Source of the DNA: Streptomyces akebiae | GTDB lineage: Bacteria; Actinomycetota; Actinomycetes; Streptomycetales; Streptomycetaceae | Length of the DNA stretch: 64,000 bases | Direction of reading: 5' to 3' | Assembly: GCF_019599145.1 (NCBI RefSeq) | Contig: NZ_CP080647.1 | Coordinates: forward strand, 9,610,001 to 9,674,000 | Shown: piece by piece, positions 6,145 to 45,282 of the stretch | Position numbering within the stretch: position 1 is the first letter of the stretch | Layout of the letters: each line of letters begins with the position of its first letter | The notes under the pieces: model-generated | Told to the model about the DNA's origin: nothing | What the model saw: the letters and a program-made list of their open reading frames with translations, nothing else | Database searches by the model: none | Program-made: the position numbers and the translations under genes

Positions 6145-6199
6145 CCCGCTCCCCATACAGGGCATCCGCTCCTTGTGCGGGCCCGCCACCGTCGGCTCC

Positions 6200-7707: not shown

Positions 7708-8147
7708 GCGGACCACGCCCGAGGCGGCTCTGGCGGCTGCTGCCGCTCACGGCGGCGCTGTACGGGGTGCTGTGCAGCAGCGTCGTCTGGCTGTGGTTCG
7801 ACGGCGCGTCCGGCGTCGACGGCTTCGTCGGTGCCAACACCTTTGTGTGGATCACGCTCGGTCTGCTGCTGTGGCTGCCGGTCGGTCAGCCCCGGGTGAA
7901 CCGGCCGTGCCTGAGCCGCAGCGCCAGGGCCACGGCCGCCGCGCCCACTCCTGCCGCGCCCGTGATCGCGCCCGCCACCGGCCAGCCGGGAACGGCCGGC
8001 TCGGCACTGCCCGCGCGGACCTCGGGCGGCGACGCGGGGCCGGCCTCAGGTGCCGCCGCCGGGCGCGGAGGAAGGAGCGAGCCCACGGCGTCCACGCGCC
8101 CGACGGCACCGAACCCCCAGTCCAGCAGGGAGCGCGCCTCCTCGTAG
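7704..8147 (+). CDS. Small predicted membrane protein, unknown function
   Basis: Open frame of 147 codons whose ATG overlaps the stop of the glycosyltransferase (ATGA, 7704-7707), suggesting coupled translation. Two hydrophobic helices are visible (about 10-28 and 46-62: LLPLTAALYGVLCSSVVWLW and FVWITLGLLLWLPVG). The remaining 85 residues are low-complexity Ala/Pro/Ser/Arg and run antisense to the 3' end of the convergent carboxypeptidase gene, with 262 nt of overlap. That tail probably has no conserved sequence. The N-terminal part looks real; the long tail may simply reflect absence of a stop codon. Confidence 0.5.
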   Translation: MSGPRPRRLWRLLPLTAALYGVLCSSVVWLWFDGASGVDGFVGANTFVWITLGLLLWLPVGQPRVNRPCLSRSARATAAAPTPAAPVIAPATGQPGTAGSALPARTSGGDAGPASGAAAGRGGRSEPTASTRPTAPNPQSSRERASS

Positions 8148-9112
8148 ACGGCGAAGCCACCCCCCGACTCGGGACGCATCACCGTCACGACGAGGGTGCG
8201 CCCGTCCCGTTTCGCGGCCGCGATCAACGTGTTGCCCGCGTGGGTGGTGTAGCCGTTCTTGACGCCGATCAGCCCCGGGTAGCGCTCGACGCCGGCGCCG
8301 GTGAGCAGTCGGTTGGTGTTCTGGATGCCGTACGACCAGCCGCCCGCGGGGAACTTCGCACTGGCCGTGGCGCAGTACCCGGCGAACTCCGCGTTGCGCA
8401 GCCCGGCCCGCCCGAACACCGCCAGGTCGTAGGCGGACGACACCTGACCGGGCGCGTCGTAGCCGTCGGGAGAGACGACGTGGGTGTCCCGGGCGCCCAG
8501 GGCGCGGGCCTTGGCCCGCATCTGCTCGGCGGTGGCCTTCCAGCCGCCGTTGAGGTGGGCCAGGACGCGGACGGCGTCGTTGCCCGAGCTGAGGAAGACC
8601 CCGCGCCACAGGTCGGCGACGGTGTACGTGCGGTTCTCCTTGACGCCGACCAGGCTGCTTCCGGCGCCGATGCCCGACAGTTCCTCGCGCTTCACGGTGT
8701 GTCTCAGGCCCGCCGGGAGGCCCGGCAGCACGGTGAGCGCGAACAGGGTCTTCAGCGTGCTCGCGGGCGGCAGTCTGCGGTGCGCGTCGTGCGCGGCGAG
8801 CACCGCGCCGCTGTCGGCGTCGGCCACCAGCCACGACACCGCGGACACGTCCTGCGGCACCTCGGGCGCCCCGGCCCGGGGCCGTACCTGTGTCCCCTGC
8901 CCGTACAGGGACGGTGACTCCTGCGCGGCCTTGGCGTCCTGAGTGCCCGTCCCGGACCGGGGGCCGACGGCTTCCGGGTCGGTCGCGACGGCCAGGGCCC
9001 CGAGCGCGCAGACGGCGGCGCAGCACACGGCGAGGCGGGCCGCACGGGCAGCGCGGGCGCCACGGGGGGCGCGAGCAACACGGGAAGCGCGGGAGCGGAA
9101 TCCGATGGTCAT
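7886..9112 (-). CDS. D-alanyl-D-alanine carboxypeptidase (peptidase S11)
   Basis: Exported penicillin-binding protein of 408 residues that trims the terminal D-Ala of peptidoglycan stem peptides. An Arg/Ala-rich N-terminus leads to a signal or anchor helix (about 26-44). The three active-site motifs follow: STLK (118-121), SGN (176-178) and KNG (285-287). The third is usually KTG; Asn at this place should be noted but the surrounding GYTTHAG is normal. A C-terminal hydrophobic helix then a short basic tail (RLRHGRFTRG) anchors it to the membrane. ATG 9112 gives the best start. It converges on, and overlaps, the small gene at 7704. Confidence 0.88.
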   Translation of the reverse strand: MTIGFRSRASRVARAPRGARAARAARLAVCCAAVCALGALAVATDPEAVGPRSGTGTQDAKAAQESPSLYGQGTQVRPRAGAPEVPQDVSAVSWLVADADSGAVLAAHDAHRRLPPASTLKTLFALTVLPGLPAGLRHTVKREELSGIGAGSSLVGVKENRTYTVADLWRGVFLSSGNDAVRVLAHLNGGWKATAEQMRAKARALGARDTHVVSPDGYDAPGQVSSAYDLAVFGRAGLRNAEFAGYCATASAKFPAGGWSYGIQNTNRLLTGAGVERYPGLIGVKNGYTTHAGNTLIAAAKRDGRTLVVTVMRPESGGGFAVYEEARSLLDWGFGAVGRVDAVGSLLPPRPAAAPEAGPASPPEVRAGSAEPAVPGWPVAGAITGAAGVGAAAVALALRLRHGRFTRG

Positions 9113-9192
9113 ACCGCAAACGTAGGAAGGGGCGTGCCGTAGTCCGGGATGCCCGGGCCGAGCGCACGGATCGAGCACCCGGATGCCGCATG

Positions 9193-10344
9193 TCATGCCG
9201 TCGGCAGCGTGGGGCGCACCTGTCGCAGGAAGGTCGCGTTGTCCGGCGTGGCGCGCATGCGTTCCAGCAGTGTCTCCAGGTTCGTCTGCCCCTCGCGCGA
9301 CCGCAGGGCCCGCCGCAGACCGCGCACGGCCGCCAACTCGCCTGCTGTCAAAAGGAGTTCCTCGCGGCGGGTGCCGGAGGGGGTGATGTCCACGGCCGGG
9401 AAGACCCGCCGGTCGGCGAGGGCGCGGTCCAGGCGGAGTTCCATGTTGCCGGTGCCCTTGAGCTCCTCGAAGAAGAAGTTGTCGGCGCGGGACCCGGTCT
9501 CCACGAGGGCGGTGGCCAGGATGGTGAGGGAGCCGGCCTCCTCGGTCAGCCGGGCTGCGCCGAACAGCCGCTTGGGGCCCTGCAGAGCGGCGGCGTCGAC
9601 CCCGCCGCTGAGGGTGCGGCCACCGGCCGCGGCCGCGTTGTTGTGGGCCCGGCACAGCCGGGTCAGGGAGTCCAGGAGGATCACGACGTCCTCGCCCTGT
9701 TCCACGAGCCGCTTGGCGCGCTCCACGACGAGTTCGGCGAGCGCGACGTGCTGCTTGGGGGACCGGTCGAACGTCGAGGCGTACACCTCCCCCCGTACGG
9801 AGCGCCGCATGTCGGTCACCTCCTCGGGCCGTTCGTCGAGCAGGACCACCATCAGGCGGGCCTCGGGGTGGTTGGCGGCGATGGCGGCCGCCACCTGCTG
9901 CAGCAGGACGGTCTTGCCGGTCTTGGGCGGGGCCACGATCAGCCCGCGCTGTCCCTTGCCGACGGGGGCGACGACGTCGACCAGACGGCCCGTCAGGCCG
10001 CTCGCCGGGTGTTCCAAGCGCAGTCGCTCGCGCGGGTGCAGCGGGGTGAGGTCGTGGAAGTGCGGGCGGCCGCGCAGCTCTTGAGGCGTACGGCCGTTGA
10101 CCCGCTCGACGTCGGTGAGGGTACGCCGACCGTCGTACACACCCTCGACGGTGTCGCCCTTGCGCAGGCCGTACCGGCGGATCAGCGCGGCGGAGACCTG
10201 GGGGTCGGAGGGGGTGGGCAGGCAGCCCTCGACGCGCAGATGGCCGTGTCCGCCCTGTCCGCCCTGTGCGGTCTCCAGGACGCCGGTGACCCGGACCGGA
10301 GGCCGAGGATGTGTGGAAGTGCGTTCGATTGTGGTGCTGGTCAT
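9193..10344 (-). CDS. rho: Short Rho-type transcription termination factor
   Basis: Hexameric RNA-dependent ATPase family, 383 residues. An RNA-binding cold-shock-like region (about 17-95) is followed by the RecA-like motor. The Walker A motif is APPKTGKT (138-145), Walker B is VVILLDSLTRL (220-230), and the Q/R-loop segment GGVDAAALQGPKRLFGAAR (247-265) is intact. Streptomyces housekeeping Rho is normally far longer because of a large basic/acidic N-terminal insertion. This copy lacks both the insertion and the N-terminal helical bundle, so it is likely a second, compact paralogue (inference). ATG 10344 is preceded by AAAGGA. An in-frame upstream extension exists but has no family similarity. 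Confidence 0.85.
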   Translation of the reverse strand: MTSTTIERTSTHPRPPVRVTGVLETAQGGQGGHGHLRVEGCLPTPSDPQVSAALIRRYGLRKGDTVEGVYDGRRTLTDVERVNGRTPQELRGRPHFHDLTPLHPRERLRLEHPASGLTGRLVDVVAPVGKGQRGLIVAPPKTGKTVLLQQVAAAIAANHPEARLMVVLLDERPEEVTDMRRSVRGEVYASTFDRSPKQHVALAELVVERAKRLVEQGEDVVILLDSLTRLCRAHNNAAAAGGRTLSGGVDAAALQGPKRLFGAARLTEEAGSLTILATALVETGSRADNFFFEELKGTGNMELRLDRALADRRVFPAVDITPSGTRREELLLTAGELAAVRGLRRALRSREGQTNLETLLERMRATPDNATFLRQVRPTLPTA

Positions 10345-10728
10345 GAAGGAGGGTCCTTTCGAGGACGTGGGAAAACGCGTGGGAAGCGAGGGGGAGGGCA
10401 CACACCCGGAGTTCGGCTGAGCCGTGCACGGCCGCGCTTCGAGAGGCGGTCCGTGTGTCGCGGGTGGTTGTGGTGAAGCCGACGCCGATCGAGATGTCGA
10501 CGGGCGGTGCGGCGAGAGAGATCTCAGGAGCTGAGCTGCGCTGAGAGGGAGCGGCACCGGCGCCCGGGAAGGGGCGATACACACGTGCCGCGATCAGCGT
10601 ACCACCACCGGCGGCCGATGGTGCGGAGTTCCTTACCGACGGCTTACCGGTGGCCGTTGAACCGATCTCGGGGAGCCCCCGTACAGATGGGGGCACCGCC
10701 AGCGGTCTTCGCACGGAAGGAACGTCGC
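10345..10728. other. 384-nt divergent intergenic region between rho-like gene and sulfatase
   Basis: No convincing gene. It must hold the leftward promoter and a long leader for the Rho paralogue (long leaders are usual for autoregulated rho) and the rightward promoter for the sulfatase gene. A short hairpin (GCCCCC 10675-10680 with GGGGGC 10689-10694) sits about 35 nt before the sulfatase start. I could not pick out confident -10/-35 elements. Confidence 0.4.
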
Positions 10729-34123: not shown

Positions 34124-35080
34124 TCACCCCGTCAGAAAGTCGACGAGAGCCGCGTTCACCTCGTCCGGGCGCTCCTGCTGCGTCCAGTGTCCACAGCCGG
34201 GCAACTCGACGGGCTCGCCCCGAAGGCTGGGCATCAGGTCCGGCAGGGCCGCGATGAGTTCGGGCGTGCCGGGGAACGCGGGCACCAGATCACGGTCGCC
34301 GTAGACGAACAGGGCGGGCGGGGTGACGCGGGCGTGGTGCCAGGGTGCCGTCAGCTCCCAGTTGCGGTCGAGGTTGCGGTACCAGTTGAGTGCTCCGGTG
34401 AAGCCCCGGGAGAAACTCTCGGTGAGGACGTCGAGGTCGTCCTCGGTGAACCACTCCGGCAGCGCCTCGGGGTCCGCGAGCGTCGTGAGCCAGCCCCGCT
34501 CGGGATCGACCAGGGGCTGCCTGTCCTCGCCGGTGACGCGAGCGTCGCCGGAGGCCCAGTAGAAGATCTTCCGCAGCGTGGTGCGGGGGTCCTCGGCGAA
34601 CTCGGCGTCGGCGACACCCGGGCGGTTGAAGTAGTTCCAGTAGAAGCGGCCGCCGTACCTCTCCTGTGCCGCCACCAGCGGAGGCTGCTTCCCCCGGAAG
34701 GGGGGCGGCACGCTCAGGCCGGCCACCCCGAGCACCATGTCCGGCCGCAGCAGTGCGGTGTGCCAGGCGACCGGCGCGCCCCAGTCGTGTCCCACGACGT
34801 ACGCCTTCTCCTCGCCGAGCGCCCGGATCAGCGCGACGACGTCGCCGACCAGATGGAGAATGGTGTACGCCTCGACGGCCTCGGGGCGGTCGCTGTCTCC
34901 GTAGCCGCGCTGGTCGGGGGCGACGACGCGGAAGCCCGCCGCGGCCAGCGGGTCGAACTGGTGGCGCCAGGAGTACCAGGACTCGGGAAAGCCGTGCAGA
35001 AGCACCACGAGGGGGCCGGCGCCCTGCTCGGCGATGTGCAGTCGTACTCCGTTCGCTTCGATCATTCGATGCGCAACCAT
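34124..35080 (-). CDS. Epoxide-hydrolase-like alpha/beta hydrolase
   Basis: Protein of 318 residues. HGFPESWYSWRHQ is the oxyanion-hole motif typical of soluble epoxide hydrolases, the nucleophile is Asp99 in VGHDWGAP, a lid segment has LNWYRNLDRNWE, and the general base His is in GCGHWTQQERP. Haloalkane dehalogenase is less likely because of the HGFPESW motif. It follows the methyltransferase by 67 nt on the same strand and may be the last gene of the peptide-system operon. Start ATG 35080, or ATG 35065. Confidence 0.82.
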   Translation of the reverse strand: MVAHRMIEANGVRLHIAEQGAGPLVVLLHGFPESWYSWRHQFDPLAAAGFRVVAPDQRGYGDSDRPEAVEAYTILHLVGDVVALIRALGEEKAYVVGHDWGAPVAWHTALLRPDMVLGVAGLSVPPPFRGKQPPLVAAQERYGGRFYWNYFNRPGVADAEFAEDPRTTLRKIFYWASGDARVTGEDRQPLVDPERGWLTTLADPEALPEWFTEDDLDVLTESFSRGFTGALNWYRNLDRNWELTAPWHHARVTPPALFVYGDRDLVPAFPGTPELIAALPDLMPSLRGEPVELPGCGHWTQQERPDEVNAALVDFLTG

Positions 35081-35147
35081 GCGAACGAGCGTACGCGTCG
35101 GGGGATCCGGGTCCCGGTGGAGCCTGGCCGCCCTCCTGGTGTGGTTG

Positions 35148-36011
35148 TCAGGGCTTGACGTAGGAGCAGATGGCCAAGGGCGAGTCCGGGCCGTACGGGG
35201 CCGCGTCGGCCGGCCAGTCGCCCCAGCGGCGTTCGGGTTCGAGGCCGGCGGCGCGGGCGTAGGCGTCGAATTCCTCCGGCGCGGTCAAACGGGAGACCTC
35301 GGTGCCCACCCGGGTGGTGCCGTCGGACTCGTACCAGACGTGGGAGAGGTGCCAGAGGGACCCCTCGGGGAAGAGCAGGGAGTGGCTCTGCAGACCGGTG
35401 CCGGGTTCGGGGTAGGGCGTGAAGTACGTGGCGCGGGCGCGGCCTTCGTGCAGGGCGAGGACGGCCGGCTTGTTGTGGGTCTCCACGACCAGTCGGCCGC
35501 CGGGGGCGAGCAGGTCGGCGGCGCGCCGCACCGCCTGCTGCTGCTCCTCGGGGGTCAGCAGCATGGAGAGGGTGGCGCAGATCGCGTACACCAGCCCCAC
35601 GGTGCCGTCGGCGGTGTAGGTGCGGATGTCGGCGTGCACGGGCTCCACGGGGGTTTCCTCGGTGAGGTCCCGGCGCAGCAGGGCGAGCATCTCCGGGGAG
35701 GAGTCGACGCCGGTGATCCTGCCGACCCGGCGGGAGAGCGGGAGGGCGATGCGCCCGTTGCCGACACCGAACTCGACCGTCCCCGTGGCCGGGTCGGGGT
35801 GGAGCGAGGCGAGGAGATCCACCTCGGCGACGACGGACGCGTCGTCGGGGAAGAGCCGGTGGTACCAGCCGTCGAACTGCCGTCCGTAGCCGATGTCGTC
35901 GACGATGCCGGTCGTCGTGGTCCGGGTTGCTGTCCCGGTCCGGGTGGTCGCGCCGGCCGTGGGGGTCTTGGTCAGGGTGACGGACGTGGTGGACGTGGTG
36001 GACGTGCTCAT
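35148..36011 (-). CDS. Class I SAM-dependent methyltransferase
   Basis: Protein of 287 residues with an unusual Thr/Ser-rich N-terminal tail (about 1-35, almost only Thr, Ser, Ala and Gly) before the fold. The SAM motif is VEFGVGNGRIALPL, followed by ITGVDSSPEML and LVYAICATLSMLL. Its start overlaps the upstream 63-residue gene by 4 bp, so it belongs to the operon of the HTTM/DUF5819 island. It could modify the Ala-rich peptide or a small molecule; the target is unknown. Confidence 0.75.
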   Translation of the reverse strand: MSTSTTSTTSVTLTKTPTAGATTRTGTATRTTTTGIVDDIGYGRQFDGWYHRLFPDDASVVAEVDLLASLHPDPATGTVEFGVGNGRIALPLSRRVGRITGVDSSPEMLALLRRDLTEETPVEPVHADIRTYTADGTVGLVYAICATLSMLLTPEEQQQAVRRAADLLAPGGRLVVETHNKPAVLALHEGRARATYFTPYPEPGTGLQSHSLLFPEGSLWHLSHVWYESDGTTRVGTEVSRLTAPEEFDAYARAAGLEPERRWGDWPADAAPYGPDSPLAICSYVKP

Positions 36012-36199
36012 GGGTGGTGCCTCCGCTTCTTGGGTGGGGTGGTCCTCGGATGGGCGTTCCTTCTGGCCTGGGAGCAGGCCCCGAGCAGCACCACGAGGGC
36101 GACGCCGAGGACGGCGGGGGTGCTGACGGCCCGGGTGGTGATGAGGAAGCCGACGATGCCGAGGGCCACCACGAACGGGATCAGCAGGAAGTCGTTCAT
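36008..36199 (-). CDS. 63-residue membrane protein
   Basis: Two hydrophobic helices (about 3-22 FLLIPFVVALGIVGFLIT and 28-44 PAVLGVALVVLLGACS) followed by a basic tail ending PPKKRRHHP. It is tightly set between the ABC exporter (58-nt gap) and the methyltransferase (4-bp overlap). Size and charge would suit an immunity or assembly factor in a peptide system, but this is inference only. Confidence 0.65.
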   Translation of the reverse strand: MNDFLLIPFVVALGIVGFLITTRAVSTPAVLGVALVVLLGACSQARRNAHPRTTPPKKRRHHP

Positions 36200-36257
36200 C
36201 AGGTTCTCCTTTGGGGGAGGTCGTTTCGGGAACTTCGTTCTCCTGTCGGGTCTTCGG

Positions 36258-38150
36258 TCAGGACGCCACGTCGCTCAGCGCCTGGAGCCGGGCGAGCCGG
36301 CGGTAGAGGTCGCTGTGGCGGTGGAGTTCGTCGTGGGTGCCGACGGCGTGCACCCGGCCCCGGTCCAGCACGACGATCTGCTGGGCCTCGGTGACGGTGG
36401 ACAGCCGGTGGGCGATGGCGATGACGGCGCAGAAGCCGGAGATCATGGCGATGCTGTCGCGCAGCGCGTTCTCCGACTCGGTGTCGAGGTTCGCGGTGGC
36501 CTCGTCCAGCAGCAGGAACCGGGGCGCCTGCAGCAACGTCCGGGCGATGGCCAGGCGTTGTCGCTGACCTCCCGACAACCCCGCGCCCCGATCGCCCAGT
36601 TCGGTGTCGAGGCCGTGCGGAAGCGCGGCGATCACCTCGGTCAGGTTGGCCATGCGCAGCGCCTCGGCGATGTCCTTGTCGTCCGCGTCCGGCGCGCTGT
36701 AGGTGAGGTTCTCGCGGACGGTGCCGCGCAGCAGCGTGTGGTCCTGGTCGACATAGCCGACGATGGACCGCAGCTGGTTGAGCGGCAGATCGGTGATGTC
36801 CGTCCCGTCGATGCGGATCGCCCCGGACACCGGGTCGAAGAGCCGCTCGATCAGCTGGAAGAGGGTGGACTTGCCGCCGCCGGAGGGACCGACGATGGCG
36901 GTCAGCCCTCCGGGCGGGACGCTGAAGGAGACCCCGTCGAGGACCATCTTGTCGCTGCCCGGGTAGGAGAACCGGACACCGTCGAAGCGGAGTCCGGGCT
37001 CGTAGTCGCGCCTGAGCGGGCGGACACCGCGCGGCCGTTCGGCCGACGGTCCGCCGACCGCGTCCGTCTCGACCTCGATCCTGCCGAGCTCCGCGAGCCG
37101 GTCCACCGACGCCCTGCCGATCTGGAACTGCGCGATCGACTCGAACAGCGTCAGCAACGGCGCCACCAGGTAGAACAGGTAGAGGATGAACGCCGTCAGA
37201 TCGGCGGTGGGCATCGCCCCGGTCGCCGTGCGGGCCGCGCCCAGACCGATGACGACCGTCAGGGCGAGCTGGGTGCCGATGCTCATGGTCGGGTCGAGCA
37301 GCGACGACATCACCGTCACCTTGATCCCCGACTTCCGGGCTCGCCGGGCGATGGCCGCGATCCCCTCGGCCTCCCGGCTCTCGGCGCGGGAGGCCTTTAC
37401 GGTGGGCATCGCCCCCAGCACCCGCAGCAGGGCGGAGCCGAAGGTGCCCAGGTCGGCCTGGTTGAGCACCGACACCCTCCGCACCCCGCGTGCCAGCCAG
37501 AGCGAGACGGCGCTCGTCACGCCGAGGCAGGCCAGGGTCGCGGCGAGCAGCACGGTGTCGATCCAGGCCATCAGGGCGATCCCGCCGATGACCAGGAAAC
37601 TGTTGTTGAGGATGCTGTCGATGGCGTGGGTCATGGTGGAGCGGGCGAGCATGGTGTCGCTGACCATCCGGGAGAACACATCGCCCTGCTGCAGTCCGCT
37701 GTACGCCTTGAACCGGGAGCGCAGCAGCCGCGAGGCGAGCGTCCGGCGGATGTCGTAGACGATGTTCTCGCCGGCCAGCCCGATGACGTACGAGTGCAGT
37801 GCGCCCAGAGCGGCGTCGGCGATGAACAGCGCCGCGCCCACCAGGATCGGGCCGGTCACCGAGCGTCCCTCGCCGACGGCGCCGACGAGTTGGCCGATGA
37901 CCGCGGGCTGGGCCAGGGAGGTCCCGGCTCCCACCAGGCCGAGGAAGATCCCGAGCAGGACCAGCCGGCGGTGACGGCCCATGGCCCGCCAGGGTTTGGC
38001 TCCCTCGCCCCACAGCAGGTGCAGATTGAGCTGGGGGACCGCCCGGTGCCCGGCCCGCCGCCCGCCACCGGGCCCGCCCTCCTTCGCCAGGTTCACCGGG
38101 GGGTCCTGCGGGCGGGTGTGCCGCCCCCGGCCGGCCGGAAGGTCACTCAT
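36258..38150 (-). CDS. ABC exporter, fused membrane and ATPase domains
   Basis: Protein of 630 residues. An N-terminal cytoplasmic stretch of 60 residues, six membrane helices (about 63-340), and a nucleotide-binding domain (about 385-620) with Walker A GPSGGGKST, signature LSGGQRQRLAIARTLL, Walker B FLLLDEATANLD and switch His in IAHRLST. It has no C39 peptidase domain, so it would export without cleaving a double-glycine leader. Its place in the HTTM/DUF5819 operon suggests export of the mature peptide. Confidence 0.85.
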   Translation of the reverse strand: MSDLPAGRGRHTRPQDPPVNLAKEGGPGGGRRAGHRAVPQLNLHLLWGEGAKPWRAMGRHRRLVLLGIFLGLVGAGTSLAQPAVIGQLVGAVGEGRSVTGPILVGAALFIADAALGALHSYVIGLAGENIVYDIRRTLASRLLRSRFKAYSGLQQGDVFSRMVSDTMLARSTMTHAIDSILNNSFLVIGGIALMAWIDTVLLAATLACLGVTSAVSLWLARGVRRVSVLNQADLGTFGSALLRVLGAMPTVKASRAESREAEGIAAIARRARKSGIKVTVMSSLLDPTMSIGTQLALTVVIGLGAARTATGAMPTADLTAFILYLFYLVAPLLTLFESIAQFQIGRASVDRLAELGRIEVETDAVGGPSAERPRGVRPLRRDYEPGLRFDGVRFSYPGSDKMVLDGVSFSVPPGGLTAIVGPSGGGKSTLFQLIERLFDPVSGAIRIDGTDITDLPLNQLRSIVGYVDQDHTLLRGTVRENLTYSAPDADDKDIAEALRMANLTEVIAALPHGLDTELGDRGAGLSGGQRQRLAIARTLLQAPRFLLLDEATANLDTESENALRDSIAMISGFCAVIAIAHRLSTVTEAQQIVVLDRGRVHAVGTHDELHRHSDLYRRLARLQALSDVAS

Positions 38151-38189
38151 CCCGGGCCCTCGGCCCCATGGCGGCCGTCCGTACCCGGC

Positions 38190-38315
38190 TCACTCGTGTT
38201 CCCTCCCTTCCTCTTTCGCTTCCGCCTGGGACCTGCGGATCCGCAGGCCCGCCTTGAGCAGTCCGAGCGCGAATATCAGCATCGCGAGCAGGATGAAGGG
38301 GATGGCGAAGTCCAT
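38190..38315 (-). CDS. 41-residue single-helix membrane protein
   Basis: Very short gene starting 1 nt after the upstream DUF5819 stop (TGACATG on the coding strand). One strongly hydrophobic helix (about 3-22, DFAIPFILLAMLIFALGLL) is followed by a charged Arg/Lys/Glu tail (RIRRSQAEAKEEGREHE). The tight spacing and clean topology make it a credible gene. Function unknown; it could be a small subunit of the HTTM/DUF5819 complex or an immunity peptide. Confidence 0.65.
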   Translation of the reverse strand: MDFAIPFILLAMLIFALGLLKAGLRIRRSQAEAKEEGREHE

Positions 38316-38316
38316 G

Positions 38317-38937
38317 TCACACCTTTGCGGGAGTCTTGGCCGGGGCCGACGTCAGCGGGGTGCCCGGGGCCTGCGGGTCGAGGGGAACGAACGGGGAGAC
38401 GAACATCAGCTCGGGACGGTGGCGCGTGTCGAAGCCGGTGGCCCGCGCCAGCGCGAACTGGAAGCCCCGTACTTCGTCGGCCGCGAGGCCCTGGGACCTG
38501 ATGAGGAGACGCAGGTGCTCGGTGACCATCCGGTAGCCGGGGACCCGGGAAGCGGCCTCGAAGCCGCCGAACTCGAGGGTCGGGAGGATGTCGGCGCACG
38601 CGTCGGAGACGCCCTTGTCCGCGCGCCGGGTGGGGAACCACACGATGTGCTGGGGCTTGCGCGTCTCGGTCGTGAACCCGTCCCGCCAGGGCGAGGCGTT
38701 GCCCTCCGCGTCCACCGTGCGGTACAGGAAGTGGCTGTCGTGCATACAGGGGTTGGGGGCGAAGAACCGCCAGTTCGGTACCAGGGACAGAACGTCCTTC
38801 GTACGGAACCGGGAGAACTGTTCGAAGGGGTGCTGGCCCGCGAAGGTGACGACCAGCATGGCGGCGCCGGCGATCCGCCAGGCCGCGCCCTCGCCGGTGA
38901 ACGGGTTCTTCAGCGGAAGACGTCGCGGCATGCTCAC
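38317..38937 (-). CDS. DUF5819-family protein, SdpA-like
   Basis: Protein of 206 residues with one N-terminal membrane helix (about 18-36) and an extracytoplasmic domain. VPNWRFFAPNPCMHDSHFLY (about 53-72) is the most conserved block, reminiscent of the WxFFxxxP region of SdpA, which works with SdpB to mature the Bacillus SDP toxin. GTG 38937 overlaps the HTTM gene by 4 bp. DUF5819 proteins commonly sit beside HTTM proteins. A role in maturing or exporting the Ala-rich peptide is inferred from this pairing. Confidence 0.7.
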   Translation of the reverse strand: MSMPRRLPLKNPFTGEGAAWRIAGAAMLVVTFAGQHPFEQFSRFRTKDVLSLVPNWRFFAPNPCMHDSHFLYRTVDAEGNASPWRDGFTTETRKPQHIVWFPTRRADKGVSDACADILPTLEFGGFEAASRVPGYRMVTEHLRLLIRSQGLAADEVRGFQFALARATGFDTRHRPELMFVSPFVPLDPQAPGTPLTSAPAKTPAKV

Positions 38938-40853
38938 CGGGAGGCCTCCTTCCTGAGGGTGACGGATCGGGTGGACCGTGCCGCGCGGGGGCGCTCGTCG
39001 AGGTTGTGGAAGAAGGCGAGGACACGGTCCGTCACCTGGTGGGCGTAGCGGCTGTTGATCAGCAGGGTGTCGTGCCCCGCCCCCTCGATGACCACCGTCT
39101 CGGTGGGCGCCCCCCGGTGGGCCTCGGCCAGTTCCCGGTGCATCAGCAGTTGTTCGGGGTCGCGGTCCACGGTCCGCTGGGCCGAGATCACCAGGCAGGG
39201 CACGCCCTCGATCGGAGCGAGTCGACCGGGGAAGGCCTCGAAGTCCTCCCGCAGCGCCGTCCATTCACGGCGTGCCGCTTCCCACATCCGCGCGTCGGAG
39301 TACTGGGCGAAGACCTTGTCCTGGTAGGCGGCGGGGAGTTCCTTGATCCACCACGGGCGGGTGAGGAGGGCCCCGGTGCCCAGCCGCAGGGCTCGGCTCA
39401 TGGAGGTGAAGGTGCTGCCCAGGCCGGCACCGGTCACCCGCTGCTGGGCGGACCGGTGGAACTGGTCGGGGTGCGAGGAGTCGAGGTACACGACGCCGTG
39501 CACCCGGTCGCCGAGGTGCGTCACCGCACGGCGGGCCAGCTCGCCGCCGATCGAGTGGCCGACCAGGACCACCTTGCGGTGCGGTGCCACGGCCCCGTTG
39601 ACCAGGTCGACGAGGTCGTCGACGGACTCCGTCAGCCGGTAGGCGGTGGTCGCCCTGCGGTGGCTCCCGGCGTACCCGGCGCGGGCGTAGGTGATGACGC
39701 CGTACGAGGTCTCGTAGGCCAGGCGCTCGCTGATCCAGGCGTAGTGCTCGCTGGTGGACAGCAGACCGGCGGCGAGCACGAAGACCGGCCGGTCGGCGTC
39801 CCCGGCGGCCATCTCCTCGTACTGGAGCCGGTTGCCGTGGCGGGTCGTCAGCACTCGGGAGGTCCGCCAGCCCTCGGTGGCGCGCATGCGCCGGTGCACG
39901 GCGGTGACGCCCGCGGCCGCCGTCGCACCCGCGAGCAGGGTGAGGGCGGCGGGCAGGGCGCGGTCGTCGCGTCCCGCCACCGCGGGGTGCGTGCGGGGGG
40001 CCGCGGTGTAGGCGATCAGCGGGTGCATCGCGGGGAACGCGGTGGCGAACCTGCCGAGCCCCATGAAGTAGCCGTTGGCGAGGTGGAACGCGGCGGCGCT
40101 CGCGAGGACGGGACGGGTCAGTCGGCCGCCCTTGAGATAGGCGAGCGGGAAGAGGCATTCCAGCGCCAGCACACTGTGGGCGAGCAGCTTGGCGGCCCGG
40201 GGGTTGTTCCGGATCCAGGTGTGCATGCCCTCGTGGCCGTAGGTGTGCGTGCGCATCACACCCGGAAGGGCCGAACCGTCGCGCCAGTCCGGGCCGAGCA
40301 GCTTGACCCAGCCGGAGACCAGGTAGGAGAGGTTGGACTGCAGGGCGACGTACCACATCAGGGCGTCCTTGGCGGCCGGCGAGGGCACCAGACGGGCGCC
40401 GCCGGTGGCGAGCTGTACGAGGGTCGCCACCTGGTCGGCGCCGTCGCTGCCGTAGTGCTGGCGGGGGCCGAGGAGGGCGGAGGTCGCACCGAGGAAGAGG
40501 CTGCCGGCGCCGCGCCAGGGGGACCTGCCCGGCAGCAGCATGGCGGAGGCGACCGCGGCCCGTGTGACGTGCAGAGCCGTCGTGGTCCGCCGTCCGCTGG
40601 CGATGTCGATCACTCGACGCAGCAGGGGGTTCGCGTGCGCGACGCTGTCCTTGGCGATGTCCCAGTCGTTCATGCCTCCCTTGTCCATCTCATGGCGCTG
40701 GCTGAGGTATTCGAGGGACGAGGTGAGGCTCGTCGCGGCGGCCAGCCGCTCCGACAGGCCCAGCGCGCGGTCCCGGCCGACCGGTATCGGGCCGAGCACC
40801 GCGGAGGCGACCTTGTCCGGGACCGCAGAGGTGATCCTTCGGACGAGTTTCAT
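38934..40853 (-). CDS. HTTM membrane protein fused to an alpha/beta hydrolase
   Basis: Protein of 639 residues. Residues 1-320 form a multi-helix HTTM domain (the vitamin-K-dependent carboxylase/SdpB-related fold) with the hallmark SYLVSGWVKLLGPDWRDG at 176-193. A linker leads to an alpha/beta hydrolase domain (about 335-620): nucleophile elbow VGHSIGG (Ser434), acidic residue near 560, and His594 in EGAGHDTLL. SdpB alone has only the first part, so the fusion brings a serine hydrolase or peptidase-like activity to the membrane enzyme. It is the first enzyme gene after the peptide gene and is preceded by AAAAGAGG. Confidence 0.75.
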   Translation of the reverse strand: MKLVRRITSAVPDKVASAVLGPIPVGRDRALGLSERLAAATSLTSSLEYLSQRHEMDKGGMNDWDIAKDSVAHANPLLRRVIDIASGRRTTTALHVTRAAVASAMLLPGRSPWRGAGSLFLGATSALLGPRQHYGSDGADQVATLVQLATGGARLVPSPAAKDALMWYVALQSNLSYLVSGWVKLLGPDWRDGSALPGVMRTHTYGHEGMHTWIRNNPRAAKLLAHSVLALECLFPLAYLKGGRLTRPVLASAAAFHLANGYFMGLGRFATAFPAMHPLIAYTAAPRTHPAVAGRDDRALPAALTLLAGATAAAGVTAVHRRMRATEGWRTSRVLTTRHGNRLQYEEMAAGDADRPVFVLAAGLLSTSEHYAWISERLAYETSYGVITYARAGYAGSHRRATTAYRLTESVDDLVDLVNGAVAPHRKVVLVGHSIGGELARRAVTHLGDRVHGVVYLDSSHPDQFHRSAQQRVTGAGLGSTFTSMSRALRLGTGALLTRPWWIKELPAAYQDKVFAQYSDARMWEAARREWTALREDFEAFPGRLAPIEGVPCLVISAQRTVDRDPEQLLMHRELAEAHRGAPTETVVIEGAGHDTLLINSRYAHQVTDRVLAFFHNLDERPRAARSTRSVTLRKEASR

Positions 40854-40899
40854 GGAACCTCTTTTCCTGGTACTTTCGAATGCGTTTTTTGAGTACGGC

Positions 40900-40948
40900 G
40901 GAACCCGCTGCCGGACCAGAACAGCCCTCTGGTCCGACAGCGGGTTCC
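40900..40948 (-). promoter_or_regulatory. Intercistronic hairpin between the peptide gene and the HTTM gene
   Basis: Two-part stem: 40900-40910 pairs with 40938-40948 (11 bp), then 40913-40920 with 40928-40935 (8 bp), around a 7-nt loop. It begins 20 nt after the peptide stop. Downstream on the coding strand is A-rich, not T-rich, so it probably attenuates or protects the upstream mRNA, giving more peptide than enzyme. Confidence 0.7.
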
Positions 40949-40968
40949 TATGCGATCACCGTCGGTCG

Positions 40969-41238
40969 TCAGACCGCGGGCGGCGTACCGCCGACGGCGG
41001 CGAGCGCGGCCTGGTTCTGGGCGTTGGCCTCCGCCGCCAGGTTGTTGGCCTCCGCGGCCTGCGCGACACCGACCGCCGCGGTGGCGGCCGCCGCGAGGGC
41101 GCCGACACCCTCGGCCGCCTGGGCGATGCGGCCGATGCGGGCGATCCGCGGGGTGCCCAGGGTCGGGCGAGCGGCGACGTAGACGACACCCTCGACGGGG
41201 ATTTCCACGCTGTTCAGCGCGTTCTCGATGCTGCTCAT
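40969..41238 (-). CDS. Ala-rich, Cys-free 89-residue peptide, candidate precursor
   Basis: No homologue recognised. The sequence runs from MSSIENALNSVEIPVEGVVY, through a basic stretch (RIARIGRIA, 31-39), to a small-residue core of alternating Ala/Gly/Val and Asn/Gln (about 41-82) ending GGTPPAV. Alanine makes up 27 of 89 residues; Cys, Lys, His, Trp and Phe are absent. There is no standard signal peptide and no Cys, so it is not a lanthipeptide. ATG 41238 has GAGAGG at ideal spacing; ATG 41247 overlaps that site. Position before HTTM, DUF5819 and ABC genes argues for a processed secreted peptide. Confidence 0.7.
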   Translation of the reverse strand: MSSIENALNSVEIPVEGVVYVAARPTLGTPRIARIGRIAQAAEGVGALAAAATAAVGVAQAAEANNLAAEANAQNQAALAAVGGTPPAV

Positions 41239-41302
41239 TTCTTTCATCCTCTCGCATTCGGGACTGCGGAAGTTCTTTTCTTCCGGTGCCCTTCTGGAGA
41301 AA

Positions 41303-41331
41303 ACATTAGGGCCTCTCCGGCCGTCTCCACA
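41303..41331 (-). promoter_or_regulatory. Candidate promoter of the peptide operon
   Basis: Leftward strand: TAATGT (complement of 41303-41308) as -10, 17-nt spacer, and TGTGGA (complement of 41326-41331), a poor -35. The weak -35 in an AT-rich patch suggests that an activator is needed. ATCGATGTG overlaps the -35. Confidence 0.45.
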
Positions 41332-41395
41332 TCGATAAAAATGCCTATTGTTGAAAGCCGTCCTTCGCGCCGGGGCATCACCCCGTGGACGCGGA

Positions 41396-41426
41396 AAAGG
41401 CCCGGACCGATTCGGTCCAGGCCTTT
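41396..41426. terminator. Strong bidirectional terminator after the flavoprotein gene
   Basis: AAAGGCC-GGACCG pairs with CGGTCC-GGCCTTT (one internal mismatch, 3-nt loop), flanked by A on one side and T on the other. It lies 32 nt after the leftward flavoprotein stop and separates that gene from the peptide operon. Confidence 0.75.
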
Positions 41427-41457
41427 CTCAGGAATGTCGCGGCCGGCGGCTGCCGGG

Positions 41458-42888
41458 TCATTCTCGACCGTGCCGTCGCCGGAGATGACGCAGGGCGGAC
41501 GCGGCGGCGTTCGCGCCGCACATGCCGTGGGCGCCGGCTCCCGGTGGTGACGCGGCGGAGCAGATGTACATCCCCGGGACCCCCGTGCGGTACGGGTCGA
41601 GGGCCACCCGGGGCCGCATCACCAGCTGGAGGGCGGTGTTCGCCCCGGTGACGACGTCCCCGCCGACGTAGTTCGGGTTGTAGTCCGCGAAAGCGGCGGG
41701 CGGGCGGACGGCCATGTCGAGGACACGTTCACGGAACCCCGGCGCGAACCGTTCGATCTGCCCGATGATCGCCTCGGTCGCGTCGCCGTCGTAGCCGTGC
41801 GGAACATGTGCGTAGGTCCAGACGGGATGGAGGTCGCCCTTCGAGCGGCTCGGGTCGGCCAGGTACTGCTGGCCGACCAGGACGAAAGGCCGTTCCGGCA
41901 TGCGCCCGGCCTGGATCATCCGCTCGGTGTGGGCGACCTCCTCGAACGTTCCGCCGAGGTGGACGGTGCCCGCCCGACGGGCCGCCTCGTTGGTCCAGGG
42001 GACGCCGCCCTCGACCGCGAAGTCGGCCTTGAAGGCTCCGGGCCCGTGGCGGAAGCGCCGGTAGGCCCGCGCGACGCGTCCCGGCAGCCGGTCGCCCAGG
42101 ATGTCGGCGACGGCGCGGGGGGCGAGGTCGAACAGGACCACGTCGGCCGGGGGCAGATCGGCCGAGGCGCACACCTTCACTCCCGTCTCGATCCGGCCGC
42201 CGAACTCGAAGAGCTGTGCCGCGAGCGCGTCGCTGATCGCCCGGGATCCCCCCGCGGCCACCGGCCAGCCGTGCCGGTGACCCGCGGCGACGATGGTCAG
42301 ACCGACCGCGGCGCCGGCCGGCAGGTGGAAGGGGCGGAAGGCGTGCGCGGCCACACCGGCGAAGAGCGCGCGGGCGGCCGGCGACCGCCACAGCCGGGCC
42401 ACCGCGACGGTGGGCAGCAGGGCCCGCGACCCGAAGGCCGCGAGGCGCAGCGGATGGCGCGGCACATGCGGGAGCGGCAGCATCAGATCCTCGGCCAGCG
42501 CGTCGAAGCCGTCCGCGAGCGGCCCGAAGAGCCGCTGCCAGCGGCGTCCGTCCACTCCTCCGAGGCCGTCCGCGGTCTCCTGCACCGACCGGTGCAGGAC
42601 GCCGGCCTCGCCGGAGTCCAGGGGGTGCGCGCAGTCGATCTCCGGCAGGCACCAGGTGAGGCCGTGCCGGCCGAGGTCGAGGTCGCGCAGGAACGGCGAG
42701 GCGACGGCCATGGGATGCGTTGCGGAGCAGTGGTCGTGCAGCAGCCCGGGGGTCAGTTCGCTGGTGCGGGTGCCGCCGCCGATGGTGTCGGCGGCTTCGA
42801 GGACGGTGACGTCCACGCCCTCCCGGGCGAGGAACACGGCGGCCGCGAGACCGTTCGGACCGCTGCCCACCACGACGGCCGTAGTCAT
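41458..42888 (-). CDS. Phytoene-desaturase-like FAD-dependent oxidoreductase
   Basis: Protein of 476 residues. The N-terminal dinucleotide fold is VVGSGPNGLAAAVFLAREG (about 6-24), with TIGGGTRTSELTPGLLHD and a C-terminal VPGMYICSAASPPGAGAHGM segment closing the FAD site, as in CrtI/CrtD-like enzymes and bacterial homologues of human PYROXD2. No carotenoid genes are nearby. It lies just upstream of the peptide operon on the same strand but behind its own terminator, so a link to the peptide is possible, not shown. Confidence 0.78.
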   Translation of the reverse strand: MTTAVVVGSGPNGLAAAVFLAREGVDVTVLEAADTIGGGTRTSELTPGLLHDHCSATHPMAVASPFLRDLDLGRHGLTWCLPEIDCAHPLDSGEAGVLHRSVQETADGLGGVDGRRWQRLFGPLADGFDALAEDLMLPLPHVPRHPLRLAAFGSRALLPTVAVARLWRSPAARALFAGVAAHAFRPFHLPAGAAVGLTIVAAGHRHGWPVAAGGSRAISDALAAQLFEFGGRIETGVKVCASADLPPADVVLFDLAPRAVADILGDRLPGRVARAYRRFRHGPGAFKADFAVEGGVPWTNEAARRAGTVHLGGTFEEVAHTERMIQAGRMPERPFVLVGQQYLADPSRSKGDLHPVWTYAHVPHGYDGDATEAIIGQIERFAPGFRERVLDMAVRPPAAFADYNPNYVGGDVVTGANTALQLVMRPRVALDPYRTGVPGMYICSAASPPGAGAHGMCGANAAASALRHLRRRHGRE

Positions 42889-43134: not shown

Positions 43135-44481
43135 CTAACTCGCGTCCCAGCTCATGTCCGGCTCGGGTTCCGCGTGCGCATTCGGCTTCGCATGACGCCC
43201 GGGTTGCCGGCGGGATCCCGGACCCGATCCCGCGGCGTCCTCGGCGCCGGGGAGCACGGCCGGTGGGAGTACCGGGAAATGGGCGATGATCCACCAGCCC
43301 CCGTCGTCGGCCGGGCCCGCCGTCAGGGAGCCGCCGACCGTCTCCACGCGCTCGCGCAGCCCGATCAGGCCGTAGCCCCCTCTGCCTCCCGTGGGACGGG
43401 AGACCCGCCGCTCGGGCCCCTCGTTGTACACGTCGACCCGCAGCAGGTCGTCGCGGGTGCGGTGGACGCGCACCGTGGCCTGGGTGCCCGGTGCGTGCCG
43501 CCGTACGTTGGTCAGCGCCTCCTGGACCACGCGATGGACGGCCGAGCCCACCTCGGGCAGCAGACCGCTTCTGCGGGCGGCCCCGGTGATCTCCAGCTGG
43601 GCGGTCGAACCGTCGCCCTGGTCGCTGAACTCCGAGACCAGTTTCGCGAGTTCGGCGTACGGCTCCTCGGGACGTTCCAGGGAGACCTGCTCGCCGTCCT
43701 CGCGCAGCACCCGGATCAGCCGGCGCATGGAGTCCATGGTCCGCTGCCCGGCCTCGGCGATGTTGCCCAGGATGGGCCCGACCTGGTGGGGCGCGCTCTC
43801 GTGGACCACACCGGCGGCGTGTGCCTGGGCGATGATGCCCGTCACATGGTGGGCGACGAAGTCGTGCAGTTCCCGGGCGAGTTGGATCCGCTCGGCGAGC
43901 CGTACGGCGGCGATCGTGCGACGGCGCCGGGCGTCCAGGGTGCGCAGGTAGCACCCCGCGCCGATGGCGCCGCCGACCGCGAACGTCAGCAGGAACGGGT
44001 AGGTGAGGGTGATGCTCGTGCCCCCGGTGCGCAGGGGTTCGTCGATGACGCTGGCCCCCATCGCCGCGGCCAGCGCGAGGGCGACCCGGGGCCGGGCCAC
44101 GTGGCGGCAGGTGCGGGCGAGCAGGACCAGCATGCACGCCGTCTCCAGCAGCCCCCACTCGGGCATGGCCCAGCCCATCAGGGACGTGCCCAGAGTCACC
44201 GTCGTCGAGACGGCCGCGCAGAACCCCGTACGCCAGGTGATGCTCAGCCGCGATTCGGGCACCAGCACCAGAGCCAGCGCGACGGGGCCCGTCACCAGCG
44301 GCAACCAGTCGAGGGGGCCCCGTTGCTGCGACACGATGATGCCCACGTCGAGCAGCCACAGCACGCCCAGCGCCGGATACAGAGCGCGGTGGTCCAGCCG
44401 TCGCGCGGGTAACCGGGGGCGGCCGTGATGGTGCGGCTGGGTCGCTCGTGCCGAGAGTGCCGCGAGTGACGAAGTTGTCAT
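43135..44481 (-). CDS. NarL-type sensor histidine kinase 1
   Basis: Protein of 448 residues with about five N-terminal membrane helices (about 33-180), a HisKA_3 dimerisation segment with phospho-accepting His206 in LARELHDFVAHHVTG, and an HATPase domain (EALTNVRRHAP, about 310; GGYGLIGLRERV). The last 40 residues are a hydrophilic Pro/Gly/His-rich tail. It follows its response regulator by 99 nt. The signal is unknown; proximity suggests control of the peptide island. Confidence 0.88.
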   Translation of the reverse strand: MTTSSLAALSARATQPHHHGRPRLPARRLDHRALYPALGVLWLLDVGIIVSQQRGPLDWLPLVTGPVALALVLVPESRLSITWRTGFCAAVSTTVTLGTSLMGWAMPEWGLLETACMLVLLARTCRHVARPRVALALAAAMGASVIDEPLRTGGTSITLTYPFLLTFAVGGAIGAGCYLRTLDARRRRTIAAVRLAERIQLARELHDFVAHHVTGIIAQAHAAGVVHESAPHQVGPILGNIAEAGQRTMDSMRRLIRVLREDGEQVSLERPEEPYAELAKLVSEFSDQGDGSTAQLEITGAARRSGLLPEVGSAVHRVVQEALTNVRRHAPGTQATVRVHRTRDDLLRVDVYNEGPERRVSRPTGGRGGYGLIGLRERVETVGGSLTAGPADDGGWWIIAHFPVLPPAVLPGAEDAAGSGPGSRRQPGRHAKPNAHAEPEPDMSWDAS

Positions 44482-44580
44482 ACAACCGGAGGCTAGGCAT
44501 GCACATGCTTCCCCGGCAGGGAGTGGATCGATGTGTGGGCAGCGTCATAGATCGATTACAGGGCGCTCACCACATCCCCG

Positions 44581-45282
44581 TCACCGCCCTGTCCGTACCG
44601 TCCCGTTGGCCCAGGCCCACGCGGCCACCTCGACGCGGTTGCGTACACCGAGCTTGTGGTGGATGTGACCCAGGTGCGTCTTCACGGTGGACAGCGACAG
44701 ACAGAGCTCGTCACTGATCTCCTGGTTGGTCCGGCCCACCGCGACCAGCCGGGCCACCTCCAACTCCCGTGCGCTGAGCGAGGATTCGGGCACGCCGACA
44801 CCGTCCACCGGGACCGCCGCCCGCTCCTCCAACTGCTTCAGCAGCCGGACCGTCACCGCGGGGGAGACCAGCGCGTCACCGCGTGCGGCCGCCCGTACCG
44901 CCTCGATCAGCAGCGCGGGCGCCGCGTCCTTCAGGAGGAAGCCGCACGCTCCGTTGCGCAGCGCGACGTTGAGGTAGTCGTCCTGGTCGAAGCTGGTGAC
45001 CACCACGACCTGGGTCGGGTGCGTGGCCCCCGGCCCGGCGAGCAGCCGGGTCACCTCCAGCCCGTCCAGCTTCGGCATCCGGACGTCCACCAGGCACACA
45101 TCCGGCCGCAGCGCGCGCGCCAGCTCCACGCACGCGAGCCCGTCGGCGGCCTCTCCGATCACCTCGATGCCCTCCTGGGCGTCGAGGATGAGACGGAAAC
45201 CGGCCCGGATCAGATCCTGGTCGTCGGCGATCATCACACGTGTGGGGGTGTGGCTCACGCGGCCGAGCATGCCATGGATCAT
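44581..45282 (-). CDS. LuxR/NarL-family response regulator 1
   Basis: Protein of 233 residues. The receiver domain (about 15-130) has phospho-acceptor Asp66 in VCLVDVRMP and switch residues VVVVTSFDQDD; Lys is in FLLKDAAP. The C-terminal LuxR helix-turn-helix (about 165-225) reads LSARELEVARLVAVGRTNQE and LSTVKTHLGHIHHKLGV. It pairs with the kinase encoded downstream. Start is ambiguous between ATG 45282, ATG 45270 and GTG 45258; no strong ribosome site decides it. Confidence 0.88.
   Translation of the reverse strand: MIHGMLGRVSHTPTRVMIADDQDLIRAGFRLILDAQEGIEVIGEAADGLACVELARALRPDVCLVDVRMPKLDGLEVTRLLAGPGATHPTQVVVVTSFDQDDYLNVALRNGACGFLLKDAAPALLIEAVRAAARGDALVSPAVTVRLLKQLEERAAVPVDGVGVPESSLSARELEVARLVAVGRTNQEISDELCLSLSTVKTHLGHIHHKLGVRNRVEVAAWAWANGTVRTGR

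What the first reader, a model, noticed from the sequence alone, without database searches (positions are those of the whole stretch)
34124..41331. Undescribed SDP-like peptide system: Ala-rich peptide + HTTM-hydrolase + DUF5819 + ABC exporter
Seen: one leftward operon with tight overlaps encodes an 89-residue Cys-free peptide, a membrane HTTM protein, a DUF5819 protein, two tiny membrane proteins, an ABC exporter and a methyltransferase. Known: Bacillus SdpC needs SdpB (an HTTM protein) and SdpA (small protein) to become the SDP toxin. Inference: this is an actinobacterial relative with a different precursor and extra tailoring genes, and the tiny proteins may give immunity. I know no characterised Streptomyces counterpart.
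Basis: partly seen in the sequence, partly recalled or inferred. Interest (0 to 1): 0.9.

Follow-up and report, generated by a model that had tools for sequence, protein, structure and literature searches.

The report
Threonine-poor linaridin peptide gene cluster
A Streptomyces operon appears to make and export a long, alanine-rich modified peptide of the known linaridin class; it stands out because its peptide has very few of the residues that linaridin enzymes are known to dehydrate, so another change (probably L-to-D conversion) may be the main one.

Summary
The operon is real, but it is best read as a linaridin-type RiPP cluster, not an SDP relative. The 89-aa peptide carries PTLGTP, the PxxxTP leader motif of linaridins. 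Behind it lie LinH (HTTM fused to an alpha/beta hydrolase), a LinL-like DUF5819-related protein, an ABC exporter and a methyltransferase. H and L occur together in 27 of 27 loci, mostly near PxxxTP peptides. The genome has no SdpA, L shows no significant profile match to SdpA, and the SdpB model scores 12.5 against a cut-off of 178.4. The Streptomyces scabiei ortholog is very probably the cryptic 'linaridin' BGC#31b of PMC8914351. A conserved FAD oxidoreductase upstream should be added; the epoxide-hydrolase-like gene downstream dropped. Unusual is the core: in nine distinct clade precursors 58-88 residues, 37-45% Ala, at most two Ser+Thr, no Cys; one species has none of the three. Dehydration, the hallmark of the class, can hardly be the main task; epimerisation, already credited to LinHL, is my best guess. 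The HTTM lysine aligns with catalytic Lys218 of vitamin K gamma-carboxylase, with quinone-pocket Phe/Trp/Asn, suggesting a testable carbanion mechanism. No chemistry was tested.

The parts
40969..41238 (-). LinA-like precursor, 89 aa: leader ending in PTLGTP, then a 59-aa core (41% Ala, 2 Thr, no Ser, no Cys). An in-frame ATG at 41247 is a less likely start
40900..40948 (-). hairpin between precursor and enzyme genes, 22 pairs without bulge (2 of them G-U); attenuator-like (role inferred)
   Evidence: (z -5.6); a strong hairpin is in all 8 gaps folded (window and 7 loci), shorter in L006, L041 and L042
38934..40853 (-). LinH-like: HTTM domain (about 1-325; K184, W190, F256, H257, N260, F269) fused to alpha/beta hydrolase (S434, D563, H594 invariant in 36 of 36)
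38317..38937 (-). LinL-like: an N-terminal hydrophobic helix (TM by eye), NWRFFAPNP motif, distant DUF5819 homolog
38190..38315 (-). 41-aa protein with one hydrophobic stretch (by eye), conserved in L002-L007 and L039; function unknown (immunity or export accessory possible)
36258..38150 (-). ABC exporter (TM + ATPase); no peptidase domain among the Pfam matches
36008..36199 (-). 63-aa hydrophobic protein, conserved in L002-L007, L039, L041 and L042; function unknown
35148..36011 (-). SAM-dependent methyltransferase; by analogy with linaridins, alpha-N-methylation of the mature N terminus
41458..42888 (-). FAD-dependent oxidoreductase (CrtI/CrtO-like) upstream of the precursor; frequent companion of these loci, not in the original finding
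   Evidence: 23 of 27 loci, any strand; 17 of 24
34124..35080 (-). alpha/beta hydrolase (epoxide-hydrolase/dehalogenase-like), named in the finding; probably NOT part of the system

Best explanation
A linaridin-class RiPP operon. The precursor is delivered by its leader (ending PTLGTP) to a membrane complex of LinH (HTTM + alpha/beta hydrolase) and LinL. That complex abstracts C-alpha protons of core residues, giving mainly L-to-D epimerisation of the Ala/Val-rich core and at most two dehydrobutyrines. The leader is cut after PTLGTP, the new N terminus is methylated by the methyltransferase, the FAD enzyme makes an unknown redox change, and the ABC transporter exports a long linear peptide, probably an antagonist of related actinobacteria. 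SHOWN: gene order, PxxxTP, LinH/LinL co-occurrence, conserved catalytic-type residues, low Ser/Thr/Cys. INFERRED: epimerisation as main change, complex formation, cleavage site, methylation site, FAD role, exported product, activity.
For: PTLGTP in the precursor; PxxxTP in 26 of 54 small ORFs (Arg at most 12%, a filter I chose) within 1.5 kb upstream of H, against 47 of 540 elsewhere in the same loci and window. H and L together in 27 of 27 loci with H, 20 of them fetched on H (L002 and L038 are the same place), and in 6 of 6 non-window loci fetched on L. T in 20, FAD in 17, M in 16 of 24 loci by my gene caller. Similar gene set in a published linaridin with MS-supported cleavage at PxxxTP (PMC9927463, abstract and passages). 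A 54%-identical fused homolog in Streptomyces sp. CT34, the legonaridin strain. S. scabiei BGC#31b called 'linaridin' next to concanamycin (PMC8914351 passages); that genome has one LinH homolog at E <= 1e-8, 29 kb past the last ketosynthase of a large array. LinHL named among peptide epimerase systems (PMC10406935 passage); GrmL suggested as one (PMC10373908 passage). All nine distinct PTLGTP-clade cores from loci have at most two Ser+Thr and no Cys; one has none. HTTM, hydrolase and LinL-like genes beside annotated LanB and LanC in a S. atratus plasmid, where dehydration would have its own enzyme.
Against: No Pfam or NCBIfam match labels the precursor or L as linaridin. That this L is the 'LinL' of the literature is inferred from position and partnership; no named LinL was compared. 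16 of 69 loci gave no PxxxTP ORF by my filter; searches do show one for L004, L005, L064 and, 3 kb off, L049. No decarboxylase (type A) or SDR (type B) among the eight correctly framed proteins scanned. A review assigns cypemycin dehydration to kinases and lyases (PMC10880069 passage), which conflicts with a LinHL dehydratase. Epimerisation of a Thr-poor core is shown nowhere that I read.
Confidence: 0.75

Rival explanations
1. An SDP-like system: HTTM protein = SdpB, DUF5819 protein = SdpA, peptide = SdpC analogue, cut to an unmodified toxin.
For: HTTM half related to SdpB (hhalign probability 57, E 1e-4; shared invariants). L and SdpA are both small, with an N-terminal hydrophobic stretch and a W-x-F-F motif.
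Against: L against SdpA probability 0.14 (four SdpA sequences). SdpB model 12.5 bits against cut-off 178.4. No SdpA in the genome. Fused hydrolase, methyltransferase and PxxxTP precursor are linaridin traits.
Confidence: 0.05
2. An ordinary linaridin in which LinHL only dehydrates the one or two Thr (plus N-methylation); the Ala-rich rest stays L and merely forms a helix.
For: Eight of nine clade cores keep at least one Ser or Thr. In corynaridin seven Thr and one Ser are all dehydrated (PMC9927463). Thr-poor cores are common in the wider set: 25 of 51 have at most two Ser+Thr+Cys.
Against: No Ser/Thr position is kept throughout: S. tailanensis has none and L041 has one Ser and no Thr, yet H and L are present and open there.
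Confidence: 0.15
3. A decayed or repurposed cluster: the core has lost its Thr residues and the peptide is no longer processed, or serves as a structural or signal peptide.
For: Very low Ser/Thr; no activity known; 'cryptic' in S. scabiei (PMC8914351 passages). G106 (L040) has H, L and T but no M, s1 or precursor found.
Against: Catalytic-type residues invariant in 36 of 36 LinH; open frames of A, H, L, T and M in L002-L007; hairpin kept; synonymous excess in the precursor.
Confidence: 0.05

Closest known systems
Type B linaridins (legonaridin, mononaridin, corynaridin)
   Same: PxxxTP leader, HTTM + alpha/beta hydrolase + LinL, ABC exporter, no decarboxylase seen; methyltransferase as described for legonaridin (PMC9927463)
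   Different: HTTM and hydrolase fused (separate in corynaridin); core 59 aa, 41% Ala, 2 Thr (corynaridin: 7 Thr + 1 Ser); no SDR among the proteins scanned
Type A linaridins (cypemycin, grisemycin, salinipeptins)
   Same: LinHL genes; several D-residues reported for this type (PMC10373908 passage)
   Different: no Cys, no decarboxylase seen, so no AviCys
S. scabiei 87-22 BGC#31b (cryptic linaridin)
   Same: very probably the ortholog of this cluster (LinH 89% identical); locus tags not read, position inferred
   Different: I saw only table and text entries; product unknown
SDP (SdpABC)
   Same: HTTM superfamily protein needed for peptide maturation
   Different: no SdpA, no SdpB over cut-off, different precursor and tailoring genes
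Vitamin K-dependent gamma-carboxylase (GGCX)
   Same: HTTM superfamily; GGCX K218, W223, F286, N290, F299 align with K184, W190, F256, N260, F269
   Different: NNH Glu-binding motif replaced by DGxD (weak alignment there, -0.7 bits); a hydrolase half instead of GGCX's other domains

Membership tests
Linaridin RiPPs | precursor with PxxxTP at the end of the leader | tested here: met
   PTLGTP
Linaridin RiPPs | LinH (HTTM, alpha/beta hydrolase) and LinL | tested here: met
   HTTM and hydrolase; L co-occurs with H in 27 of 27 loci. Identity of L with the published LinL is inferred; no named LinL compared
Linaridin RiPPs | dehydrobutyrine residues from Thr in the product | not testable with these tools
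   two core Thr here; none in S. tailanensis
Linaridin RiPPs | no lanthipeptide dehydratase in the cluster | tested here: met
   none among the eight correctly framed operon and flank proteins scanned with Pfam and NCBIfam (NCBIfam lists cut at 25)
Type A linaridin | C-terminal Cys and Cys decarboxylase | tested here: not met
   no Cys in peptide; no decarboxylase among the eight proteins scanned
Type B linaridin | short-chain oxidoreductase gene | tested here: not met
   none among the eight proteins scanned; the FAD oxidoreductase is of another family
SDP (SdpABC) | SdpA homolog | tested here: not met
   TIGR04034: no match in own genome; LinL against SdpA probability 0.14 (four SdpA sequences)
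SDP (SdpABC) | SdpB over family cut-off | tested here: not met
   12.5 against 178.4 bits; own genome none over cut-off
DUF5819 (PF19136) | score over gathering cut-off | tested here: not met
   21.0 against 27.1 bits; profile-profile probability 87, E 4e-6; some relatives of L are listed with PF19136
Daptides | daptide methyltransferase equivalog | tested here: not met
   NF041820 68.1 against cut-off 175
VKGC/HTTM superfamily | Lys equivalent to catalytic GGCX K218 | tested here: met
   by alignment; role of K218 from PMC12589487 (passages)

The most novel reading that the evidence does not exclude
LinH is a quinone-dependent carbanion enzyme: like vitamin K gamma-carboxylase, its HTTM domain uses menaquinol and the conserved lysine (K184) to create a strong base that removes C-alpha protons, so that LinHL is at heart a peptide epimerase and dehydration is only what happens when the residue is Thr or Ser. 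In this clade evolution has stripped the core of nearly all dehydratable residues, leaving a 'linaridin' that is mostly, in S. tailanensis wholly, a D/L-patterned alanine-rich peptide without dehydroamino acids.
Probability: 0.2. Interest if true: 0.85.

Novelty: new variant of a known kind. Interest (0 to 1): 0.5.

Why it matters
In 2022 the roles of the HTTM protein and hydrolase of linaridins were called unclear (PMC9927463, passage). A 2023 reconstitution (Xue et al., JACS) assigns a 'family-determining activity' to two membrane proteins; I saw only its title in a reference list. A natural core with almost no Thr or Ser separates the two chemistries credited to LinHL: if the product is still modified by LinHL, the change cannot be dehydration alone. 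The alignment to the catalytic lysine and quinone pocket of human gamma-carboxylase gives point mutants and a cofactor test that could settle the mechanism, and would tie a bacterial peptide-antibiotic enzyme to blood-clotting chemistry.

Tried and rejected
SDP relationship: tested with TIGR04033/TIGR04034 and hhalign; only HTTM-superfamily kinship remains. DUF5819 as a full member: below Pfam cut-off. Daptide: methyltransferase below cut-off. Defence system: the PADLOC scan of four proteins gave only generic-looking ABC and methyltransferase matches (mad3, mad8, mad2, JetC, AriA, LmuB). Fold of LinL: model pLDDT 75.6, no PDB match with E <= 0.001. Fold search with LinH: the 50 rows shown look like alpha/beta hydrolases by their titles, so the HTTM half got no structural check. 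A LinH-only profile did not reach GGCX at E 0.001; the match came with the mixed profile A3 (one LinH, ten HTTM from the DUF5819 side, three SdpB). The epoxide-hydrolase-like gene was dropped. Sigma-70 scan upstream of the precursor: nothing. My gene caller finds L in only 10 of 24 loci, an artefact of the caller: one search finds L in all 27. In one search three of 51 'cores' (two PRPRTP, one PPGRTP) look like wrong-frame ORFs; without them 9 of 48 lack Thr and 1 of 48 lacks Thr, Ser and Cys. The 69 loci include places fetched twice. Not counted among the nine clade precursors: P0073 (core with 1 Thr), P0074 (same as L005), P0075 (129 aa; its tail runs into another frame and holds Ser, Thr and Cys) and P0076 (21% coverage), all.

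Errors of mine: and protein 1, used the wrong frame for the peptide; repeated in the right frame (no family either). Protein 3 was not a gene of the operon.

Papers: PMC9927463 (abstract and outline, whole introduction, passages); PMC10406935, PMC10373908, PMC10880069, PMC7794033, PMC5719810, PMC8914351, PMC12589487 (passages only); PMC8893953 (one reference title). Georgiou 2020 (PMC7680433) is not held, so whether it already lists Thr-poor precursors like these is unknown. Xue 2023 and Xiao 2022 were seen only as citations. Host of cypemycin is recalled.
Full report
WHAT IS THERE. The window lies at 9.61-9.67 Mb of a 10.5-Mb genome. By sequence it is a Streptomyces near the scab-associated species: LinH is 94% identical to S. 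caniscabiei and 89% to S. scabiei. The leftward operon runs precursor A (41238..40969), H (40853..38934), L (38937..38317), s1 (38315..38190), T (38150..36258), s2 (36199..36008), M (36011..35148). H is an HTTM domain fused to an alpha/beta hydrolase; T an ABC exporter; M a methyltransferase. H, T, M, s1 and s2 homologs recur in order in L002-L007 and L039; in L041 and L042 s1 is only a weak match; L040 lacks M and s1. The frame of A shows 6 synonymous and 2 non-synonymous codon differences to S. caniscabiei and GC3 0.91.

BOUNDARIES. The downstream epoxide-hydrolase-like gene has a homolog within 7 kb of H in only one other genome among the 27 loci, about 1 kb further out. The FAD oxidoreductase upstream of A has a homolog (E <= 1e-20, either strand) in 23 of 27 loci and in 17 of 24 by a separate clustering, and an NAD(P)/FAD oxidoreductase precedes a related cluster on a named plasmid. 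I therefore move the system to about 35148..42888. Between A and H lies a hairpin of 22 pairs, two of them G-U (centroid -47 kcal/mol, z -5.6). A strong hairpin is present in all eight gaps folded, the window's included, but shorter in L006, L041 and L042. It looks like an attenuator that lets precursor mRNA exceed enzyme mRNA; that role is inference.

WHY LINARIDIN. Corynaridin, a characterised linaridin, has a precursor cut at PxxxTP, an HTTM protein, an alpha/beta hydrolase, LinL, an ABC transporter and an SDR (PMC9927463, introduction and passages). Our peptide has PTLGTP. Starting from H in 295 Streptomyces genomes (41 with a match at E <= 1e-10, the window's own included), small ORFs with PVMATP, PVLATP, PVAFTP, PTMTTP and the like sit upstream of many H genes. 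In the loci compared, 26 of 54 small ORFs (45-140 aa, Arg at most 12%, a filter I chose) within 1.5 kb upstream of H carry PxxxTP, against 47 of 540 elsewhere. In a wider set, 53 of 69 loci had such an ORF and 16 had none by the filter used there (for L004, L005, L064 and L049 searches show one). L accompanies H in 27 of 27 loci (26 places, since L002 and L038 are the same). In reverse, 6 of 6 non-window loci found with the L profile in 396 genomes of the phylum have H. Several loci hold HTTM and hydrolase as separate ORFs (for example L050-L052), as in corynaridin. Streptomyces sp. CT34, the legonaridin strain, encodes a fused homolog 54% identical over 96%; whether that one is the legonaridin enzyme I could not check. 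In S. scabiei 87-22 a published table lists BGC#31b 'linaridin, cryptic' directly after the concanamycin cluster (PMC8914351, passages). That genome has one LinH homolog at E <= 1e-8, at 9,403,896-9,405,812, 29 kb past the last ketosynthase of the array at 9.31-9.37 Mb. So the ortholog is very probably already labelled linaridin in print, without a product.

WHY NOT SDP. SdpA and SdpB occur over cut-off in the same 4 of 61 Streptomyces genomes (G005, G009, G013, G031), not in this one. Profile comparison: LinL-DUF5819 probability 87 (E 4e-6); LinL-SdpA 0.14, though that insignificant alignment does pair NWRFFAPNP with QGWAFFTKSP; DUF5819-SdpA 2.2; LinH HTTM-SdpB 57 (E 1e-4); LinH HTTM-HTTM from the DUF5819 side 84; SdpB-HTTM from the DUF5819 side 97. 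Only four SdpA and four SdpB sequences were used, so the negative is soft. What is shared for certain is the HTTM superfamily; a remote LinL-SdpA kinship is not excluded.

WHAT IS UNUSUAL. In the nine distinct PTLGTP precursors found in loci the cores are 58-88 aa, 37-45% Ala, with no Cys and at most two Ser+Thr. S. tailanensis (L006) has none of the three; L041 has one Ser and no Thr. Thr-poor cores are not confined to this clade: in the wider set 25 of 51 distinct cores have at most two Thr+Ser+Cys, 10 of 51 have no Thr, and 1 of 51 has none of the three (three of the 51 look spurious). LinH keeps its hydrolase triad (S434, D563, H594) and its HTTM residues in 36 of 36 fused homologs. Linaridins are described by dehydrated Thr; here the substrate for that is nearly gone. 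LinHL is also named as an epimerase system (PMC10406935 passage citing Xiao 2022 and Xue 2023), and type A linaridins contain several D-residues, with GrmL a suspected epimerase (PMC10373908 passage). Opinions on dehydration differ: LinH or LinL (PMC7794033 passage) or kinases and lyases for cypemycin (PMC10880069 passage). A S. atratus plasmid carries HTTM, hydrolase and a LinL-like protein beside a gene annotated lantibiotic dehydratase and LanC, and the small ORF upstream has no PxxxTP: there dehydration should have its own enzyme, so LinHL is presumably there for something else.

MECHANISM IDEA. A profile of HTTM proteins (LinH, HTTM from the DUF5819 side, SdpB) finds human gamma-carboxylase at E 3e-9. 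[quoted passage not shown] numbering from the 31-residue offset between the chains listed, with one gap before W190). K184 is invariant in 36 of 36 fused LinH, 31 of 31 more distant rows, and the 10 DUF5819-side and 3 SdpB rows. F256 and N260 are invariant in the 36 fused LinH and frequent in the distant rows (28 and 22 of 31). N260 is absent from the 13 other HTTM rows; F256 occurs in 2 of the 3 SdpB rows only. The Glu-binding NNH of GGCX seems to be replaced by DGxD, but that part of the alignment scores -0.7 bits. I infer, not show, that LinH makes a strong base in the membrane and removes C-alpha protons; reprotonation from the other face gives D-residues, and loss of water gives dehydro-residues where the side chain allows it. 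The hydrolase half, with an intact triad, might remove the leader, since no other protease was seen among the proteins scanned.

LIMITS. No product was seen. LinL identity is by position and partnership, not by comparison with a named LinL. The library holds only open-licence papers, and the key linaridin survey was not readable. The listings and passages from my ten searches mention no Thr-free linaridin, but none of those searches asked for exactly that, so I make no claim that it is unpublished.

Noticed in passing
G000:C1:5058751-5060462 and other Streptomyces genomes (L092-L141): PF19136 (DUF5819) proteins are present in 60 of 61 Streptomyces genomes at E <= 1e-5, and in many of them weak SdpB-model (HTTM) hits lie right beside (coordinates; not counted): a near-universal uncharacterised HTTM + DUF5819 pair.
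   Followed up: partly
L148 (NZ_CP108284.1, Streptomyces atratus plasmid) 2293-10367: Genes annotated lantibiotic dehydratase and lanthionine synthetase C run in one direction with HTTM, alpha/beta hydrolase, LinL-like and a flavin oxidoreductase gene; the small upstream ORF has no PxxxTP.
   Followed up: partly
window 40900..40948: Very stable hairpin between precursor and LinH gene, with a strong hairpin at the same place in seven related loci.
   Followed up: partly
L147 (plasmid pGBA1, Streptomyces sp. GBA 94-10): A related cluster with two PxxxTP precursors on a linear plasmid typed as mobilizable, with transposase genes on both sides.
   Followed up: no
window 43135..45282: What look by eye like a sensor kinase (43135..44481) and a response regulator (44581..45282) lie beside the cluster (no family scan done); the second one's family recurs in 8 of 24 loci, all in the close clade, so shared neighbourhood is as likely as regulation.
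   Followed up: no
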